Part shown: one piece after another, positions 14,391 through 60,565 of the stretch
Layout: each line of letters opens with the position of its first letter
How positions within the stretch are numbered: position 1 is the stretch's first letter
From: Isoetes taiwanensis
Lineage: Eukaryota > Streptophyta > Lycopodiopsida > Isoetales > Isoetaceae
DNA: 64,000 nucleotides
Assembly: GCA_021234155.1 (NCBI GenBank)
Contig: JAJEKV010000003.1
Span: forward strand, 34,393,166 to 34,457,165
Direction: 5' to 3'
Position numbers and translations under genes: made by a program
The notes under the pieces: generated by a model
Seen by the model: the letters and a program-made list of their open reading frames with translations, nothing else
Told to the model about the DNA's origin: nothing
Databases searched by the model: none

Positions 14391-17331
14391 CTAATGCGCA
14401 TTGCTACGGGTTTAAAAAGCTTGCAATTTAAGCTCCACATGACACATATACCGGTTAACACAAAAACTTATGTTGCCTATCTTGCTAGAACTTGCAACTA
14501 ACAATATTTGTTAAATGCAGGAAGAAGATGACAAAATTCTTTGCTAATTTTCAATTCAAAGGCATGAGTTTAATCTTGTACCTAAGACGACGTTCAGTAA
14601 GGACTTATCCAATACCACATTGATATCTCACACTCAATATCTTAAACAATATGAATCTTAAGCCTAGAATGACAACTTCTATAATCCCTCGCTTTTCAGT
14701 TCATGTCAATGAACAATTATTTTACTTGCAAACTCTTGCATATAGAGTAAGCTAACCTTAAGACTACAAAAATCGTGGCTCGAAGCAAGAAAAAACCACT
14801 ATAGACATGTTGAATTGCGATGAACACCAAAATACAAACAAAAGAGTTCTCACAATAAAGTGTAAACTCTAAGCAAGAAATAACCCGTCCACAATTTGCT
14901 ATGCCATAAGCATGCTCATTTCCTACTCCATTAGAAATTGAGAAGCAAAATGTACCTCTCCTCTTGTTCTGGCATCAACCTACGAAGACGCTCTCTTTCT
15001 TGGAGCTCCAGAAACTTTTCCCGACTAAGAGGTCTCTCATTGCAGGCCTAGATGTTGGCATAAGGCCACTGAGTCTCACAAGAAGTCACAGTTATATGAC
15101 TACAAAATGAACTTCACCTCAGAAAAACTGGAGGGAGAATCTCCAATGTCATACATTAGCTGTGCATGGATGCTCCAACAAAGAAAGGAGGCATAAATGG
15201 TGAAATACCATATGGTACTGGAGTATCGTATCTTCCATACATTCCATCACCATATCCAAGGGTGATCAATCCCTTGCAAGACGGTCTGGAGAACCACAAA
15301 CATAACCGGTATATGTGTCATCGATGTGTGAAGATGAATCTGTTGAGCCATCGATGGACCTTGCCAAAACATCTCAGGAGCATATGACGACATTGGATTC
15401 ATTGGTACACCTGCAATATCAGTCCAAACATGAAACACACAACCAGATTCTGCTGTTCTGCCAACTTAAATACTGAACTAACATAAATTCCAGCATAGCT
15501 TGCCCAAGTTCTAAGTCAAGAACAAAACTAAAGCTATTCTAAACTGCCTTTTTCCCTACTTCAGCCCAGCTGGATAAACAGGCTTAGTGCTGAAAATAAG
15601 GATAAGGATATGTGTGTCTCTTGTGGAAACATGATATTACAAATGAATCAAAAGCACGAACTTTTACCAAAAGATATGTGCAGTGCAGAACCTAGCCTTC
15701 CGCATCAAGAACCAGCAAAGAATAAGCTTTACAAATACCGAAAACCGACCTTGTATGTAAGGGAAATCGGGATCATCGGTAGCACTTCATCAAACGCCTG
15801 AAAGGACTTTGAATAATATGCATTGCATGTAAAAAACCTTATGCCTTGCAAAATGCCACTATTAATGGCAGCAACTGAGTTAACCCTTTCTGGCACTTAT
15901 TTTGCTGATCCATTATACCTTTGAAAACATCATCTCTTCTCGTGGTACAAAAAAAATTCTGCGAGCAAAATTCTTACTGTACCATTCTAGATTCTTGACA
16001 AATATAGAGGCAATCCAGAAAAGTTGCATCGATGCCATTCTATACAAACATAACAAAACTTGTTCAAGAATGTGACAAAATTTGCAATCTATTCTTCCGC
16101 TTATTCCCTTGAATGGAATGCACACATATATAAAGCATAAACAACTATCCAAGAACAAAGGAATTTTCAGGAGATACCTTTTCTACAAGGCCAAAATTGT
16201 TGAGAACATATAAACTCACTTTTAGCTCTTGAGACCATCCAAAGATTAGGAAGGGAAGCTTGACATCAAAATGTAATTATCCATGCCTCCTTTGAATGGA
16301 AAAGATGAAGAACTTAGAAATGGCATCAAGAATGGGTTTCCAAAAAGTTCCATGCGACAAATACTTGGCCATCTAGCGAAGAAAAAAACCATATCCTTGA
16401 TAACCGAGATATTCAAACTCAAGCAAAGGATCGCAGATATGAATCGCATAGGCGGCACATAGCTTTTGCAATTTTAAGGTAACTTTAATAGGTGGATATT
16501 TTACCATCAACACATAGTTGAAAACATCCCTCATGGATAGTTTTAGTTGGAACTAAACATGATCCGCCATCTACAAATATATTGACTTTACTTGCTAAAA
16601 GCATTGCACGGTATTTGTATCTCAACGTGGTTATTCTATCATGGGAAGTTGGTTAAGCTTCCATTTTGTTACTAAATCCCTGCTTTATAATTAAACCTTG
16701 CTTTATCACTTAAAAATCTTGGCCCTTTGGGCCGGACCACCGAGAACATACCGCATGAATGTCTCATCCCTCGAGATGGGTGCCCTAAATCTTAAATACG
16801 AACCCAATGAGCGTGAAAACCGAAAACCCAAGGGAAGTGGATGTCAACAAACTTTGCATCTCGCTCATGAAACATCAACGCTTGATCAAAAGTACTATGC
16901 TCACATCTTGAAAACACATGAAACAAAAACATGAAAAGTTTGCCCATCTTAAAAGAATCCACTTTGTTGAACAAAAAGGGCCACATGCTCGCAGAAAAAC
17001 CCTATAGAATCAAGTAAACATGAACATTAAACTTGAAAACGCTTCCTATTCATAATTTCTCAATCTTGTAAATCAAAAATATAAATTGAAGATCAAGAAT
17101 GAGTTCCCGGCTCTGTTCTTGCAAAGATGAAAAGAAATATGAAGATGCGCATCGAGGAGGAGCTTCTAGCTCGGTGCTATTTTCCCGCCTTAACTAACCC
17201 TAGCAAAAAAAAAAACCATGTTATTTTAAAGAATGTGACGTGGCATCATCTCCTCCATTGATTTCATCAAATCTGGGCCGCCCAAATTAGGGCTGGGTCC
17301 AACACTTACACAATAACATTATAATATAGGA
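14391..17331 (-). mobile_element. Helitron C, about 2.9 kb (3' end tentative)
   Basis: The 5' end at 17331 reads TCCTATATTATAATG on the minus strand. It is followed by a subterminal block (CCAGCCCTAATTTGGGC, CAGATTTGATG) shared with other Helitrons here. The likely 3' end at 14391 has CCCGTAGCAATGCGCATTAG|T, which resembles plant Helitron tails but lacks the second hairpin arm and has TTAG in place of CTAG. The interior holds no recognisable gene. A segment at 16490-16660 matches 17825-18000 in the neighbouring Helitron B. Confidence 0.5.
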
Positions 17332-17332
17332 C
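17331..17332 (-). other. Tail-to-head Helitron junction (B|C)
   Basis: On the minus strand CTAG, the last four bases of Helitron B, is followed without any intervening base by TCCTATATTATAATG, the first bases of Helitron C. Because every inserted Helitron has A|TC at its start, its own 5' boundary is a legal A|T target for the next insertion. Confidence 0.8.
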
Positions 17333-18003
17333 TAGAAAAATGCCAACTAAGTTGGATGAGCATAAGTTGAGAATTCTTGTAGTCCGACACCTTCAATTAT
17401 AAACATATAGACTTCATCTATTAATTGTCAAGCATTTCATCTATAGAATTAGAATTAGGAATGCAATGCAAAATTATCTGTCCATCCTTCCTCCTCAAGA
17501 GATTGCATATTTATTTCAGAAGAAGTGTTAGCGAGTCAAAGAAAAGATTCCATTGCTCTACTTTGATTTATATTCACACGTCTAATACATTTATGTCTAT
17601 GTTGGCGCACTATCACTTGATGCATGTTGATTCAAAAAAGAAAGGGAATCTTTGTATTCTATCCAAGATTGTTTATCTAGAGATTTACAATACATATTAT
17701 TAGACATAAAAAAAGTGCATGTTTATTTTCTATTAGTCATTGTTGTGATTGCATCTTGATCCTCTTTTCTTAACATATATAATGCAGATGCCATTTCTGT
17801 TTGATTGATCCTAATATTTTTTTATATAATGGATATTTTACCATCATCCTAATATTTTTTCCCCAACAAAAATTTGGGGGATAGTTTTTTGAAAAAGAAA
17901 AAATGATCTGCCATAAGAAATAAATTGACTTTACTTCTGCTAAAAGCATTGCCTGGTTTTTGAATCTCAACGTGGTTATTCTATCATGGGAAGTTTCAAA
18001 GCT

Positions 18004-18275
18004 TCACCAAATCGCTTTCAGAAATGCGCTATCCACATTCTGGAGCCGATTTACGACCAAGCCTTCGAAGGGGCTGGTTTTATTCTGTTTTGTGATTCCG
18101 GCAACGAGGGCTTCAGAAATATATGAAGCAAGCCTCTGCATCTGGCTGCCGATGTTGAGGACCAGGTGATTGAGCTGCGAGAAAAAAAGCCCTGCCATTT
18201 GCATATTATCCTGCGAAGCAGCCTCTGCAAAATGGGGCAATACAAGCAAGAGGAAGCATGCCGAAATTTTTTCAA
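18004..18275 (-). pseudogene. Captured GRAS transcription factor fragment
   Basis: The minus-strand ORF (18004-18249) reads ...HFAEAASQDNMQMAGLFFSQ then LNHLVLNIGSQMQRLASYIS and EALVAGI. This matches the start of the GRAS domain (leucine heptad region I: CAEA...N...A...L.QL..L....G...QR.A.YF.EAL..R). The rest of the GRAS domain (VHIID, PFYRE, SAW) is missing. GRAS proteins are plant transcription regulators; this piece cannot function. It lies near the 3' end of Helitron B in the Helitron's own orientation, the usual setting for gene capture. Confidence 0.7.
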
Positions 18276-19977
18276 CAGGGCCCAGGTTTACCCAATGGGT
18301 GGTTTTTTGTTTCTGCTAATTCTAGTCTCATTTCCGGTGACTCTGGAGAACCGGTCCCATTAGCTTCCCAAGGTGGACGAATTTTGTGAGGCAAATAAAT
18401 GCATTTTGTGTCGAGTAGGCAAGCCCTAATCCGCATGCATTTGTCGCTGTAGAGGAGAAATGAGATGCAAGCTTCCCTCTTTTTTTTTTCGGTTAAATCA
18501 GTTACAGAGATTTCGAAGCTAGAGGAGCTGGAAAATTACACTGGATTCTTACGCTTTGGGCTCGAAGCAAGCTTTCTCCTTCGGGACTCAGTTTGGTTGT
18601 CAACTGGAACTGAAACCCTTCTATTTTTTTTTTACAGAAATTAAAGCTCTGGTTATGGCCGCTAATAAGCAATGCTAAGGGACTCTTGTGCTTCTCGTTT
18701 TGATTTAAAACATTGCACTCTTGCAGGGCATCTGGATTTGATATCTATATCAAGGACATCGCTTCTGCTATACACAGCTTTGCCAGATTTGATCATGCCG
18801 ACAGAGAAAATGGTAAGCCCAAAACTGTTGTGCTTCGGATCTTTTTGTTGTGGGTTTTTCTGCAACTCCAGTTCCGACACATGAGGGTTTGAAATTTTGC
18901 CCACAAACTGGGGCTTGTGTGCCATGATTTGTAAGGCCCATGGAACTGATTTGTAGACCCCAAAACAGGGGCTTGGTCTGCAGCATTTAGGCAGATCCCT
19001 GAAATCTTTTCCGACCAAAGGTTTCCCTTGTGCTTTACTGTTTAGAGCGTGGCATTTAGCCCGATGATCACATGCCGGGGTAAGTTGCAAATAGAAAGGC
19101 CTGCAAGCTTCAATTGATGTGTAGTCTTTGTTTTAGATCTTAGGGAATAAATGCTTCGAGCTTAAAATTTCTTAAGAAGGTGGCTTGGCAAGGCCAGTGA
19201 ATTTCTTGCTTGAGGCAACTAAGTTCTTGAACACAGTGAGATTTGTAATAGAAGATTTTTGTGGGATTTGTGAGTACTCTGATCACAGGAGGCAAGTTCC
19301 TCTTTAGTTTTTAAAATGTTTTCGTCTGGCAAATTTCAAATGGGAAATGAGTGGAGCTCTCTCTTCTAAAGACATGCAATTTTCTCTTTGTTGAAAGGGA
19401 TCTCATTATTTTGAAAACATGATTCTTAAGCTGGATTTTATAGCTTGGCTGTAATAAGGACTAGTAGACAGTCAGCTTCAGAAATTTCACTTTTTTATGC
19501 CTGGCAATCCTGAACTATTGTCCTCTCTTTTTGTTTCCCTTTATGTTCTAGCTTTTATTAATGTAGATATGTTATGCCTGTGTATTATGTTTCCAGACAA
19601 TTAAATAATGGTGAGCTTGACTTTTGCTACAATTTCTGCACCAGATCTTGAGGTTGCTAGTGCAAATGATGGTAGGTTGTACGCATTTAGTAAGATACAA
19701 AGCAGGTTGGTAAGATACAAAGCAGGCTGTAAATTTGTCTCGTTAAAACTCTTGCTCTATAAAACCATTTCTAGCCTTAAAATGCTTCTGTTCCCTTCAA
19801 GTATTCTCTCACGTTGAAGATGATGGCAGATGTTTGTCTTGAAAATTGTGTTGTCAATTCAAATGTTTAAAGAAAAGTTAAGGTCATAGGTTAACTTACA
19901 AGGTGGCAACATTTGTGCATTTCATATGATACTGTTATTGCGGCGCATTTGGTAATTGCCACACACTTGCATCATAT
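18276..19977. other. Helitron B interior, unassigned
   Basis: Holds a 142-codon minus-strand frame (18662-19090) with no family I recognise, and T-rich intron-like runs. It may be more of the captured GRAS locus (5' leader or promoter), but nothing proves it. Confidence 0.3.
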
Positions 19978-19980
19978 AGC

Positions 19981-20097
19981 AAGTTCCCTAATCTCTATTA
20001 TGTTGATTGCTTCGTTATATGCATTGTTATGCAAGAATCAAGTTCCCTAATCTCTATTATGTTGATTGCTTCGTTATGTGCATTGTTATGCAAGAAT
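19981..20097. repeat. 59-bp tandem duplication
   Basis: Two head-to-tail copies starting AAGTTCCCTAATCTCTATTA differ at about one base, so the duplication is recent. Confidence 0.9.
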
Positions 20098-20527
20098 GAT
20101 GGGATGTACACCCTAAGTTAGGTTAAACCATCTAGGTCCATTAGTCTGTCGTGTTGCTCATTACAATCGGACACAACCTATGTTTCAAATCTAGTTTGCA
20201 GTGAATAAGTCAAATGGGAAATGATACTGTAAATTTTTTATATGCTAGGTCACATGCATTAGTTTAAGGCATGTACTTTATGGCCACAGTTTAAGGCATT
20301 TGTTCTATGGCTATGGGGTGATGCCATCCAGTTGGTCTATAAAGCTTCTAGCCTTCGACATCACCATATTCATGATATGCAACTTTATCTTTCACAAGCT
20401 CTAAGTGGAGAGCAAAATATAGTATGTTTCCATGATCCAGTCCAAGTAAAAGCACTTTAGGCAATATTTGAAACAATTTAGGTAGCAAGTAACATGCTAT
20501 TTGCAAGAGTTTATTTCTTTGACAGGG

Positions 20528-20650
20528 CATGTATAGACGAGTTGGGGAAGAGAAACATTCGCGGCGGCCATGTATAGACGAGTTGGGGAAGAGAAACGTT
20601 CGCGGCGGCCTTGGCCGCCGAATAAGTTTCTTGTATATCTAACTTTAAAA
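20528..20650. repeat. 41-bp tandem repeat ending in a GC-rich palindrome
   Basis: Two copies of a 41-bp unit (CATGTATAGACGAGTTGGGG ... TTCGCGGCGGC) lead into CGGCGGCCTTGGCCGCCG (20603-20620) and then AATAAGTTTCTTGTAT. The palindrome and its flanks (GAGAAACGTTCG / AAGTTTCTT) recur inverted at 53.6 kb. The GC-rich core is alien to the AT-rich surroundings. Confidence 0.75.
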
Positions 20651-23456
20651 CCAAGAACTCAATAAGAAGATGTTGGAGCAGCTATGCCGTCTTTCAACAA
20701 AGTTGCATATTTGTAATTTTGGGCCATCTACAATAGATTGGTTACTTTTTATCGAGTAAGAAAGGCTTTGAATGTTGTACTAAAAGACCTAATCACTCAT
20801 TGTGCCATTGTGTGCCCAACTTAAAGCACCTAACTGTTCAAAAAGATATGAATTGCAAACAATCATTTTCACCTATCACAGCTTTGAATCCATATGAATC
20901 AGCCCTTTAAAAACTCTATCACAATAGAGTCATTATATATGATGAGTTCAATCCATCCAAATTCTCTATCAAGGAATGCTTTCATGTGATTTGCACTACT
21001 ATAGAGCAAAGATTTCAAGCTTTTACAAAGAAATTCAAAAATAAATATCATCCCTCTCGAGCGATTATGCACAACACCCCTTTCATACCATATTGACTAT
21101 TTCCTCCTCTCAGAAATGAATAACTTGTAAGTCGAAAAGCACATTTAGTTCATCACTTGAAGAGACCTATTGCAGTAGCACATCTCTGCCGTGGATTAGA
21201 TGTAAAGGAAAATAAAATTGGCTTTTGGTTTTAGTTCTCATCTTGGCATTCTTGGCTTTCTCTATGGGGTTTTTCTTCAACAATGGCATCCAAAAACAAT
21301 GGCATTCTTGGCTTTCTCTATGGGGTTTTTCTGCTCCAGTGGAACTTCTTAAGAGCAATTTAACTGAAAAGTACAAACCCCAAAAGCAATATGACAATAT
21401 TAAAAGCAATATGACAACTTGAGGGGTCAGAAAACATTACCTTTTGGCAAATGATTCTCAATTCCTTGTTTGAAAAAAGCATGTCAAAGTTGCATAATAT
21501 TATATTCACATTGAAATCAAAAGCCACCCTCTTAGTACTATGACGAAAAGAAATGCATCACTCACAATGCAAATAAACCAAATAAAGGCACATCAAGAAT
21601 CATAGCTAGATTCTTCTGCAAAATTTGTCATGTTTCAGAAATTCAATCGGTTAGATGGAAGGCATTTCATATTGTAGTATCCACCAAAACCAAAACCGTA
21701 GAAGGCCTTAAAGCATGTATCGAATCAAAATCCCCCTTCAAAATTGTAAGACACTGCCTCTCTCCTGCTAAGCCACATGCACCGATTGGTCCTATGTTTC
21801 CACCTACTATGCTAGCTACTTGAATAGTGCAAACATCAATCTAGTAAGGTTCACCTAAGGTAAACGTCAAGCTGGAAAATCCCCACTTTACACGTTTTCC
21901 CACGTATGATGTCTGTTTTGCTGTGAAATAATCATACCCAATTTTTTCTGCCATAAAGTTAATATCAGAATTCTCTTTCCATCTCAACATCCCACATCCA
22001 TCATTTAAATAAACTCTAAGTTAAAATCTACATACTTGTAATGCATAATTACATCCAAGAGTAGGATAGTAGCTATTTAAGCTTCAAAAACACAACCATT
22101 TCCTACAGGTTTCAAGCACAAATCGATTTGTAAGCATCAGAGTGTGTTGGATGATAGAGCAATCGCTTCCACACCAAGATCCACACCACAAAATCCCCGC
22201 CGATGCTAAATGTTAGTCACCAGCAAAAAATAATAATACTTGAAATGAACAACACTAACTTCCACCAAGCTCTCATCACAAACACATCATTTACAGCTAG
22301 ACATAAAAGCGCATCCCCACTTTACTTTCAATTCGATAGACTTTACAAAAATGCCAGAAAGATGTTTCCAAGAGCAAGTAGATGTACCTTCAAATGAATT
22401 AAGTTGAGAATGAGAAACATGACATTAGCCACAGCTTAAAGCGCTGCCTGGATGCAAAGCTGGCTGAGCTCTATACCTGCTCGAGTGCTGCATATTTTGT
22501 GCTTCAGGCCTGCAACACTTCTAACAAGAATGAGTAAATCATTGGGTGCCCATGCAAATCCGGGTGCCCATGCTCCAAATCCATCCGGGTGCCATAAATT
22601 TTGTCAAGAAGACAAATTGAGAGATCAACATAATAGCAATTTTTTAGGGGCCAGTAATTGGCAGATGCATAAAACGATCTGACTAACAAAAATACAAAGG
22701 AAGAATGCCAATTATATACTTGAAAAGTCCCATCTTTCTAGCTTTTAGAACTGTTTTACGACCAACTTTAAGTCTATCACCTGTAATTACCGCAAACTGC
22801 AATTTGAGACATTGTGCATTATGTGAAACTGTGCTACAATAAAAATGAAGATACTTCTTGCTACGCAATCAATTCAAATGGGAAACTACGTGCATTTAAT
22901 GTACAATAGCAAAAATAAGAACATAATATAGTAGAAGCATCTGGCCTAAATGTCTATTGCCTGCCTAAATGTTTCTATATGCTGCATAGCCCAAAACCCT
23001 GGAAATTTTTTAGACCACAGGGAATTGAACCCTGCTCTGAGCACCAGCTACCGCGTCAAGAAGAGTTGTAGAATAAAGCAGAAGTAGAAGGCTAATGAAG
23101 AAGCATTTCTTCATGAAGTAAATGAGATCTCATGGATCTGCTCCAGACAACTATGCTCATGCTTTGCTGACAAAAAAACATCTTCTGCCCTTTCTGATTC
23201 TACCATTTAATTGCTTTGCTTGTATAAAAGCTGTTTAGGCATCAAAAGCCTATCGAAGATCCAAGCAGGAGATACCAGCATTACAATCACTACACATGGA
23301 TTTGAGGAGTCTTAACGGAATTGAAAGCCATGATGTTTGTGACAATATGCATCAATCTGGGAAAGACAGTAGTACAAAACTCTTTCACAGACTATTTTCA
23401 GTGTGGGCAACAGGTGAGAAGAAGATAGTTGTTACATTAGCTTTCCCATCCTTGTC
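20651..23456. other. Helitron B interior, no recognisable gene
   Basis: AT-rich DNA. A ~35-bp duplication (CATTCTTGGCTTTCTCTATG) occurs at about 21245 and 21303. At 23010-23060 the minus strand has a tRNA-like word order (GGTAGCTGGTGCTCAGAGC then GGGTTCAATTCCC), which may be a tRNA-derived SINE head or chance. A leader or coding piece of an unknown gene is possible around 23280-23480. Confidence 0.3.
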
Positions 23457-23786
23457 GTTGTACCAGTTTGTTATATGATAGGAAAAATACAATCTTTTGC
23501 CAACATAACGAGGATTCATATTGACGATGAGACATATTTTACCTGGAGCTGTTAGGGCAAAACGTGGCAATGACAAATCCTTCGTTGCCCTAAATACCTT
23601 GTAACGACCATGGCTGTTGTACCAGTTTGCTAGATGACAGGAAAAATACAATCTTTTGCCAATTATAACAGAGATTCGTATTGAGGATGAGATATATTTT
23701 ACCTGGAGCTGCTATGGCAGAACGTGGCAACGACAAATCCTTGTAGGCCTTTCGTTGTCCTAAATACCTTGTAACAACCATGGCTG
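23457..23786. repeat. ~160-bp direct tandem duplication
   Basis: Two copies, each starting GTACCAGTTTG and containing AATACAATCTTTTGCCAA and TTTTACCTGGAGCTG, end at CCTTGTAACRACCATGGCTG. They differ at roughly one base in ten and by a small insertion in the second copy. Confidence 0.85.
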
Positions 23787-24008
23787 CATGAACAGAGCTT
23801 ACAGAGAAAGCTGTGATGGTAAACGAAATGTAGAATGGTAACCTACTGAGGGAAACGAAGCTGCTATGGCGGAAGGGCAGGCTGCGAGCTTACTTGGCTA
23901 GCTAAACCCTAAATCTAAACCATTCGATCAATCCAGTCCTAAATCTGAATCGTCCGATTTAGGGCGTGATGGAAAACGGACACACATCAAAACATTACTA
24001 GTAATAAT

Positions 24009-24025
24009 GCCCAGCGTTGCTGGGC
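24009..24025 (-). terminator. Helitron A 3' hairpin
   Basis: A perfect 7-bp stem (GCCCAGC/GCTGGGC) with a 3-nt loop lies 7 bases before the terminal CTAG. In Helitrons this hairpin marks where rolling-circle transfer stops. Confidence 0.85.
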
Positions 24026-24238
24026 ATAAGTTGAAACCTGTGTGAAGGATAACCTATTTAGCTCAAACTCTTTGTCATAAATGTAACATAATGAAGCAAA
24101 TCCATAGGAAAATTATCATTTGTTCTCAAATTTTTTGTCATAAATCTAACATAATGTGACCTTTTTATTATTGTGGAAAAATTCTTCTTTACATATTAAT
24201 GGTGTCCAGTGTAATAGAAACTAAAAGATCTCTAGAAA

Positions 24239-40790: not shown

Positions 40791-40892
40791 CTGCCCCTTT
40801 TGTCTTGAATCTTGATCGTCCAAATTAGGCAATCAAATCCTCGCCCTTCGATTTAGGGCTGGATTCAACACGTTAAAACATTATAATATAGG

Positions 40893-40920
40893 ATAGATAG
40901 ATATAGATAGATAGATTAGT
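40893..40920. repeat. GATA microsatellite at the Helitron D insertion point
   Basis: GATAGATAGATATAGATAGATAGATTAG directly borders the 5' terminus. The A needed before TC is supplied by this tract. Confidence 0.85.
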
Positions 40921-60476: not shown

Positions 60477-60565
60477 CGCCTAACCTAACTTTCTAACTAA
60501 ATCTGAGCCGTCAATGTTAGGGTTTCGTTGACGACATACTTACCCAATAACATTATAATATAGGA

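What the first reader, a model, noticed from the sequence alone, without database searches (positions are those of the whole stretch)
17300..17360. Two Helitrons joined tail to head with no base between (B|C)
On the minus strand the CTAG end of one element runs directly into TCCTATATTATAATG of the next. Every Helitron carries A|TC at its start, so its 5' boundary is a target for another. Exact abutment could reflect repeated insertion at that A|T, or read-through rolling-circle concatemers.
Basis: partly seen in the sequence, partly recalled or inferred. Interest (0 to 1): 0.7.

Follow-up and report, generated by a model that had tools for sequence, protein, structure and literature searches.

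The report
Helitron inserted at another's 5' end
Two different jumping genes of the Helitron kind really do touch with no base between them, most likely because one landed exactly at the starting edge of the other; such pairs are already known from maize and bats, but in this genome joints of this form are far too common and too one-sided in orientation to be accidental.

Summary
The abutment is real. On the minus strand a Helitron 3' end (TTTTTCTAG, to 17332) touches a Helitron 5' end (TCCTATATTATAATG, from 17331). Both edges are confirmed by other copies: two relatives of B stop at the same CTAG and then diverge; a relative of C starts at the same T after an A. The 5' motif occurs 999 times, 881 after A; CTAG precedes it directly 45 times, against about 0.03 expected for random A|T insertion. 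B and C are unlike elements, so a concatemer does not explain this pair; consecutive insertion does. Genome-wide the split is open: of 32 joints read, 4 pair like with like (one family), 4 pair unlike elements, 24 could not be decided. Joints are one-sided: 45 tail-to-head versus 3 head-to-head places; 56 versus 4 at an A|T inside the 5' end. The window holds a second joint, 23998|23997. I propose that the Helitron 5' end is an orientation-locked landing site, perhaps because the transposase nicks it. Maize pairs were reported in 2008, so novelty is modest.

The parts
17317..17331 (-). C: Helitron 5' terminus TCCTATATTATAATG, first base T at 17331
   Evidence: relative C223:837380 starts at the same base after an A
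16500..17331 (-). C: verified 5' part of the element; its 3' end was not found in the window
   Evidence: 832 of 832 bp matched at 88% by C223; 89% over query 153-832 by C930; no 3' end found downstream
17332..17335 (-). B: Helitron 3' terminus CTAG, directly abutting C
   Evidence: relatives at C1018 and C108 end here, are followed by T, then diverge
17343..17355 (-). B: weak 3' hairpin CCAAC-TTA-GTTGG; two relatives carry GCCCAGCAACGCTGGGC there, the window copy lacks 12 bp
   Evidence: alignment
17332..23997 (-). B: proposed whole element, 6,666 bp, with a 5' end lacking the first 10 nt. Homology with the C1018 and C108 copies covers only 17332-17768; the extent further upstream rests on the 5' motif at 23997
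23998..24029 (-). A: Helitron 3' end TTATGCCCAGCAACGCTGGGCATTATTACTAG, abutting B's shortened 5' end (second tail-to-head joint, site A10|T11)
40879..40893 (-). Another Helitron 5' terminus in the window, preceded by A
60551..60565 (-). Another Helitron 5' terminus in the window, preceded by A

Best explanation
C inserted first, at an ordinary host A|T. Later a different Helitron, B, inserted into the A|T made by the host A and C's first T, so that B's CTAG now runs straight into C's TCC. B's own 5' end then received element A in the same way, at an A|T ten bases inside it, so the array grew at its 5' side. The Helitron 5' end appears to be a preferred landing site in which the newcomer points the same way as the resident. 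The likely reason is that the HUH transposase nicks one strand of that end at A|T to start transposition; a free 3' CTAG of another element can be joined to the nicked T exactly as it is joined to its own 5' T when a Helitron circle forms. Shown here: both edges, unlike neighbours in the window, the genome-wide excess, the one-sided orientation, and use of sites A0|T1, A5|T6 and A10|T11. Inferred: the order of events, that most other joints arose in the same way, and nicking as the cause.
For: 45 exact joints against about 0.03 expected. Unlike neighbours where both could be compared: the window's B|C (one shared 120-bp stretch in 6,666 bp) and, in the window, A|B (no hit between B's last part and A's end); L041, two complete elements of 4,531 and 2,003 bp sharing only their last 37 bp, flanked by A and T; L028, a complete 1,497-bp B sharing only 71 terminal bp with C's first 1.5 kb; L040, no match between 4.9 kb on either side. 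28 of 32 joints read share their pair of neighbours with no other joint read, so one copied joint is not the source. Orientation: an A|T target reads the same on both strands, so blind insertion predicts equal orientations; 45 tail-to-head against 3 head-to-head places at up to 3 mismatches, and at A5|T6 56 tail-to-head against 4 inverse, fewer than the about 8 that chance gives. 8 of 8 A5|T6 sites read follow what looks like a Helitron 3' end, 6 of 8 with hairpin score 7 or more. Two places hold both edges of a whole element inside a 5' end, by coordinates alone: C907 6.1 kb, C908 3.0 kb. The transposase joins CTAG to TC in circles, and only the plus strand of such a joint is cleaved in vitro (passages of PMC5876387; PMC4778049).
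Against: Only 2 of 56 right-hand A5|T6 joints pair with one of the 55 left-hand motifs, and the one left-hand case with a 3' end read (L053) has no 5'-end remnant on its far side. For A|B in the window the missing ten bases and A's own 5' end were not found. Four joints are like-with-like and 24 of 32 could not be decided, and concatemers would also give only tail-to-head joints, so the orientation bias alone does not separate locked insertion from concatemers. No empty site was seen. The head-to-head count needs both 5' ends within 3 mismatches in all, so it undercounts; I assumed one third detectable. One head-to-head case near a 5' end was seen (L004/L045). The age argument is weak: B's best relatives are at 90-94% over 349-422 bp and C's at 88-89% over 680-832 bp, but short stretches of C's head match at up to 95%. 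The nick is not shown.
Confidence: 0.6

Rival explanations
1. Read-through rolling-circle concatemer, or a circle joint inserted as such: one event laid down several units of the same element in a row. For the genome as a whole this could account for an unknown share of the 45 and 56 joints; for the window pair it would need B and C to be one element.
For: Three consecutive joints of one 2.95-kb family at C31:78-84 kb and a fourth, same-family joint at C31:235.9 kb. Concatemers are always tail-to-head, as found. Imprecise circle joints are common in Helraiser and would explain inner joints without a left-hand remnant. 24 of 32 joints could not be tested for likeness.
Against: B and C in the window are unlike, as are the neighbours in L028, L040 and L041, and A and B in the window. 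The C31 units are 91-94% alike, no closer to each other than to a solo copy (90-95%); if all copies date from one burst this does not exclude a concatemer.
Confidence: 0.05
2. Insertions fall on the 5' A|T only because that stretch is A+T-rich and easily melted, with no role for the transposase at the resident end.
For: Several A|T sites of the 5' end are used (A0, A5, A10). AT-rich melting near the cleavage site is discussed in PMC4778049 (passage).
Against: Scarcity of the opposite orientation at a palindromic target, unless concatemers make up most of the tail-to-head joints.
Confidence: 0.18
3. C came second and inserted non-canonically at the G|T after B's CTAG.
For: Offered as one of two readings for the maize pair (PMC2267711).
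Against: Only 118 of 999 5' ends do not follow A, and 45 of these are the CTAG joints themselves. It cannot explain CTAG joined to a 5' end lacking its first 5 or 10 bases.
Confidence: 0.08
4. The B|C pair was copied as one unit (segmental duplication or joint transposition past B's damaged 3' hairpin), so the joint was made once elsewhere.
For: B's hairpin lacks 12 bp, which in principle favours bypass.
Against: B's 19-base 3' end is unique in the genome; relatives of B end in other flanks; C's full-length relative follows an A; none of the 31 other joints read shares both neighbours with the window pair (13 joints unread).
Confidence: 0.03

Closest known systems
[quoted passage not shown] 2008, PMC2267711; passages seen)
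   Same: CTAG of one element joined directly to TC of the next, giving a G/T instead of an A/T joint; unlike elements; consecutive insertion favoured by the authors
   Different: One pair there; here 45 exact joints in one genome, an orientation comparison, and joints at A|T sites inside the 5' end
Tandem Helitrons in the bat Myotis lucifugus (Pritham and Feschotte 2007; not seen, cited in the passages)
   Same: Perfect head-to-tail joints
   Different: Read there as tandem repeats; the window pair is of unlike elements
Helraiser circles (PMC4778049, PMC5876387; passages seen)
   Same: Exact CTAG-TC joint made by the transposase
   Different: There both ends belong to one element; here two elements on a chromosome
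Helitrons of Fusarium and Metarhizium (PMC5148889; passages seen)
   Same: One element inserted 2 bp upstream of another's 5' terminus; three copies in tandem with the same two readings offered
   Different: Non-canonical termini and target
Maize Helitrons inserting near other Helitrons (Yang and Bennetzen 2009; not held; cited in a passage of PMC12477314)
   Same: Preference for Helitron neighbourhoods
   Different: Here resolved to single bases of the 5' end and mostly one orientation

Membership tests
Canonical Helitron | 5' end starts TC, inserted after host A | tested here: met
   881 of 999 exact 5' ends follow A
Canonical Helitron | 3' end CTRR preceded by a short hairpin | tested here: met
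   CTAG; hairpin score 7 or more in 21 of 32 joints against 29 of 1,271 CTAGs. Window B scores only 5.6, its hairpin lacking 12 bp
Canonical Helitron | Followed by host T, no target-site duplication | tested here: met
   2 of 2 relatives of B are followed by T and then diverge; L041 pair flanked by A and T
Canonical Helitron | RepHel transposase in autonomous members | tested here: inconclusive
   No Pfam match at E up to 0.1 in the 7 open frames of 150 codons or more in the window; the genome was not searched for it
Canonical Helitron | Rolling-circle transposition | not testable with these tools
   Needs an active element
Rolling-circle concatemer | Neighbouring units are the same element | tested here: not met
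   Not met for the window pair, L028, L040 and L041; met for L009-L012; 24 of 32 joints undecided

The most novel reading that the evidence does not exclude
The Helitron 5' end is an orientation-locked landing site for other Helitrons: the transposase treats a resident 5' end in trans as the partner for another element's 3' end, at A0|T1 and at inner A|T sites (A5, A10), so arrays of unlike Helitrons grow at their 5' side. Some inner-site joints may be direct end-to-end joinings rather than full insertions, since the left-hand remnant is usually missing.
Probability: 0.35. Interest if true: 0.5.

Novelty: new member of a known kind. Interest (0 to 1): 0.34.

Why it matters
Exact head-to-tail Helitron joints have been read since 2007-2008 either as rolling-circle concatemers or as consecutive insertions. 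A genome with about a hundred such joints makes the question directly testable: compare the two neighbours of every joint. If unlike pairs in one orientation prevail, the 5' end is a site at which Helitrons disable or recombine one another; if like pairs prevail, concatemers are common in nature.

Tried and rejected
Chance: rejected (45 against 0.03-1.1 expected). Motif internal to one longer element: rejected. The 120-bp repeat between B and C (17995-17879 and 16650-16535, 84%) first suggested a same-family tandem; it also occurs in other copies of C and lies outside the part of B shared with B's relatives, so it does not make B and C one family.

The scrambled pattern returned 0 and is of little value as a control. 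The strict hairpin rule missed B's damaged end. The left-hand motif TCCTA|TCCTATATTATAATG, meant to confirm insertions at A5|T6, gave 55 places against about 3 expected, but only 2 pair with a right-hand joint, so most of the 55 are unexplained. Not read: 13 of 45 boundary joints and 48 of 56 inner joints. L035 and L039 are both copies of the window; L035 is the window's own joint among the 32. One search listed 100 of 118 places. The 15-mer was in no paper of the library. Searches for Helitron tandems in papers.

Full report
What is there. On the minus strand, base 17332 is the last base of a Helitron 3' end (CTAG at 17335-17332) and base 17331 the first base of a Helitron 5' end, TCCTATATTATAATG. 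In the genome the window comes from (1.66 Gb, 1,110 contigs) the 15-mer occurs 999 times and its backwards control 0 times; 881 of the 999 follow an A and 118 do not (100 of the 118 listed). The 832 bp that follow in C have a relative over their whole length at C223:837380 (88%), which begins at the same base and follows an A. The 3' edge of B is real too: two relatives (94%) share the sequence up to CTAG, are followed by T, and then differ. The window's B lacks 12 bp of the hairpin that these relatives carry.

How often. CTAG sits directly before the 15-mer 45 times. With A|T dinucleotides at 8.9% of positions in 241 kb of sampled sequence and an assumed 8,640 insertions (2,430 exact copies of one 18-base 3' end, divided by its share of 9 in 32 joints), random insertion predicts about 0.03 such joints. 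Thirty-two of the 45 were read: the 30 loci and two. 21 of 32 show a hairpin scoring 7 or more before CTAG, against 29 of 1,271 CTAGs in background sequence and 0 of 18 distinct A-preceded ends.

Who the neighbours are. Comparing 1.5 kb on each side, only four joints, all of one family (L009-L012), share both neighbours with another joint by at least 120 bp; the other 28 pairs are each shared with no other joint read. This excludes copying of one or a few joints, but not concatemers of many different families. Whether the two neighbours of one joint are alike could be judged in 8 of 32. Four are alike: L009-L012, whose B tails and C heads both match one solo element, L049. Four are unlike: the window (B's 6,666 bp and 17.3 kb on C's side share one 120-bp stretch), L041 (two complete elements, 4,531 and 2,003 bp, sharing their last 37 bp and flanked by A and T), L028 (a complete 1,497-bp B sharing 71 terminal bp with C's first 1.5 kb) and L040 (4.9 kb on each side, no match; ends not identified). 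Twenty-four are undecided because only 1.5 kb per side is in hand. The like-with-like array at C31 has units 91-94% alike, no closer to one another than to the solo copy at 90-95%; it could be an old concatemer, repeated insertion, or unequal crossing-over.

Orientation. An A|T target reads the same on both strands, so an insertion that ignores the resident should point either way equally often. Exact head-to-head joints, sought as the 30-base palindrome with up to 3 mismatches, number 3 places, two of them with the same sequence, against 45 tail-to-head. If one third of 5' ends are recognisable at that tolerance, 15 would be expected, and 3 or fewer has probability 0.0002; the one third is my assumption. 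A second test used the next A|T, five bases inside the 5' end. Tail-to-head joints CTAG|TATTATAATGTTWT number 56; 8 of 8 read follow what looks like a Helitron 3' end, 6 of 8 with hairpin score 7 or more. The inverse, TCCTA followed by the reversed common 3' end, numbers 4, with about 8 expected by chance (2,430 times 0.0032). So the excess is in one orientation. That argues against blind insertion; by itself it does not tell orientation-locked insertion from concatemers or circle joints, which are also always tail-to-head.

The same window again. At 23998|23997 another 3' end (TTATGCCCAGCAACGCTGGGCATTATTACTAG) is joined to a 5' end lacking its first ten bases: TAATGTTTTGATGTG aligns to position 11 of other 5' ends. 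This gives B a 5' limit at 23997 and makes an array A|B|C in which each newcomer sits on the 5' side. B's last part has no match near A's end, so A and B are unlike too. The ten missing bases and A's own 5' end were not found in the window.

What does not fit. If every inner joint were a whole insertion, the left side should read TCCTA|TCCTATATTATAATG about as often. That motif occurs 55 times, about 3 expected, but only two pair with a right-hand joint within 10 kb on the same strand (C907, 6.1 kb; C908, 3.0 kb; from coordinates). One unpaired left-hand case, L053, has a 3' end about 3.2 kb on whose far flank is not a 5' end. Exact matching loses many partners, but a class of 5' ends with a repeated TCCTA, or end-to-end joining without full insertion, remains possible.

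Mechanism. In Helraiser the transposase joins CTAG to TC exactly when it makes circles, and only the plus strand of such a joint is cleaved in vitro (passages of PMC5876387 and PMC4778049). If a resident 5' end is nicked in the same way, another element's 3' end can be joined to it, always in the same orientation. That is inference; sequence can show the bias, not the nick. Age supports the order only weakly: B's best relatives are at 90-94% over 349-422 bp, C's longest at 88-89% over 680-832 bp, while short stretches of C's head match at up to 95%.

What is known. Du et al. 2008 (PMC2267711, passages) describe the same G/T joint in maize, cite Pritham and Feschotte's bat cases, and weigh the same explanations. 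Cases in Fusarium and Metarhizium (PMC5148889, passages) are similar. The finding is therefore a new instance of a known arrangement; the count, the orientation bias and the inner sites are what it adds. I saw no paper stating the orientation bias in the listings, which cover open-licence papers only.

Noticed in passing
window 23997-24029 (-): Second tail-to-head joint: a Helitron 3' end joined to a 5' end lacking its first 10 bases (A10|T11).
   Followed up: partly
G000:C31:76915-85851 (L009-L011): Array of four tail-to-head units of one 2.95-kb Helitron family (two whole, two in part), 91-94% alike, with an internal repeat of about 310 bp.
   Followed up: partly
genome-wide: TCCTATCCTATATTATAATG, a 5' end with its first five bases repeated before it, occurs 55 times, about 18 times expectation, mostly unpaired.
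   Followed up: partly
window 17995-17879 and 16650-16535 (-): 120-bp repeat, 84% alike, upstream of B's verified part and inside C; the B-side copy is closer to three other copies of C (86-88%) than to the C beside it.
   Followed up: partly
L004 / L045, G000:C8:125360: By eye, a head-to-head pair: a 5' end lies next to the 5' region of an oppositely oriented element, an exception to the orientation bias.
   Followed up: no
window 61434, 34809, 27107 (-) and 46124 (+): Further Helitron 3' ends (GCCCAGCAACGCTGGGC-like hairpin plus CTAG), so the window is a nest of Helitrons.
   Followed up: no
window 20097-19980 (-): Two 59-bp copies in tandem at 98% identity.
   Followed up: no
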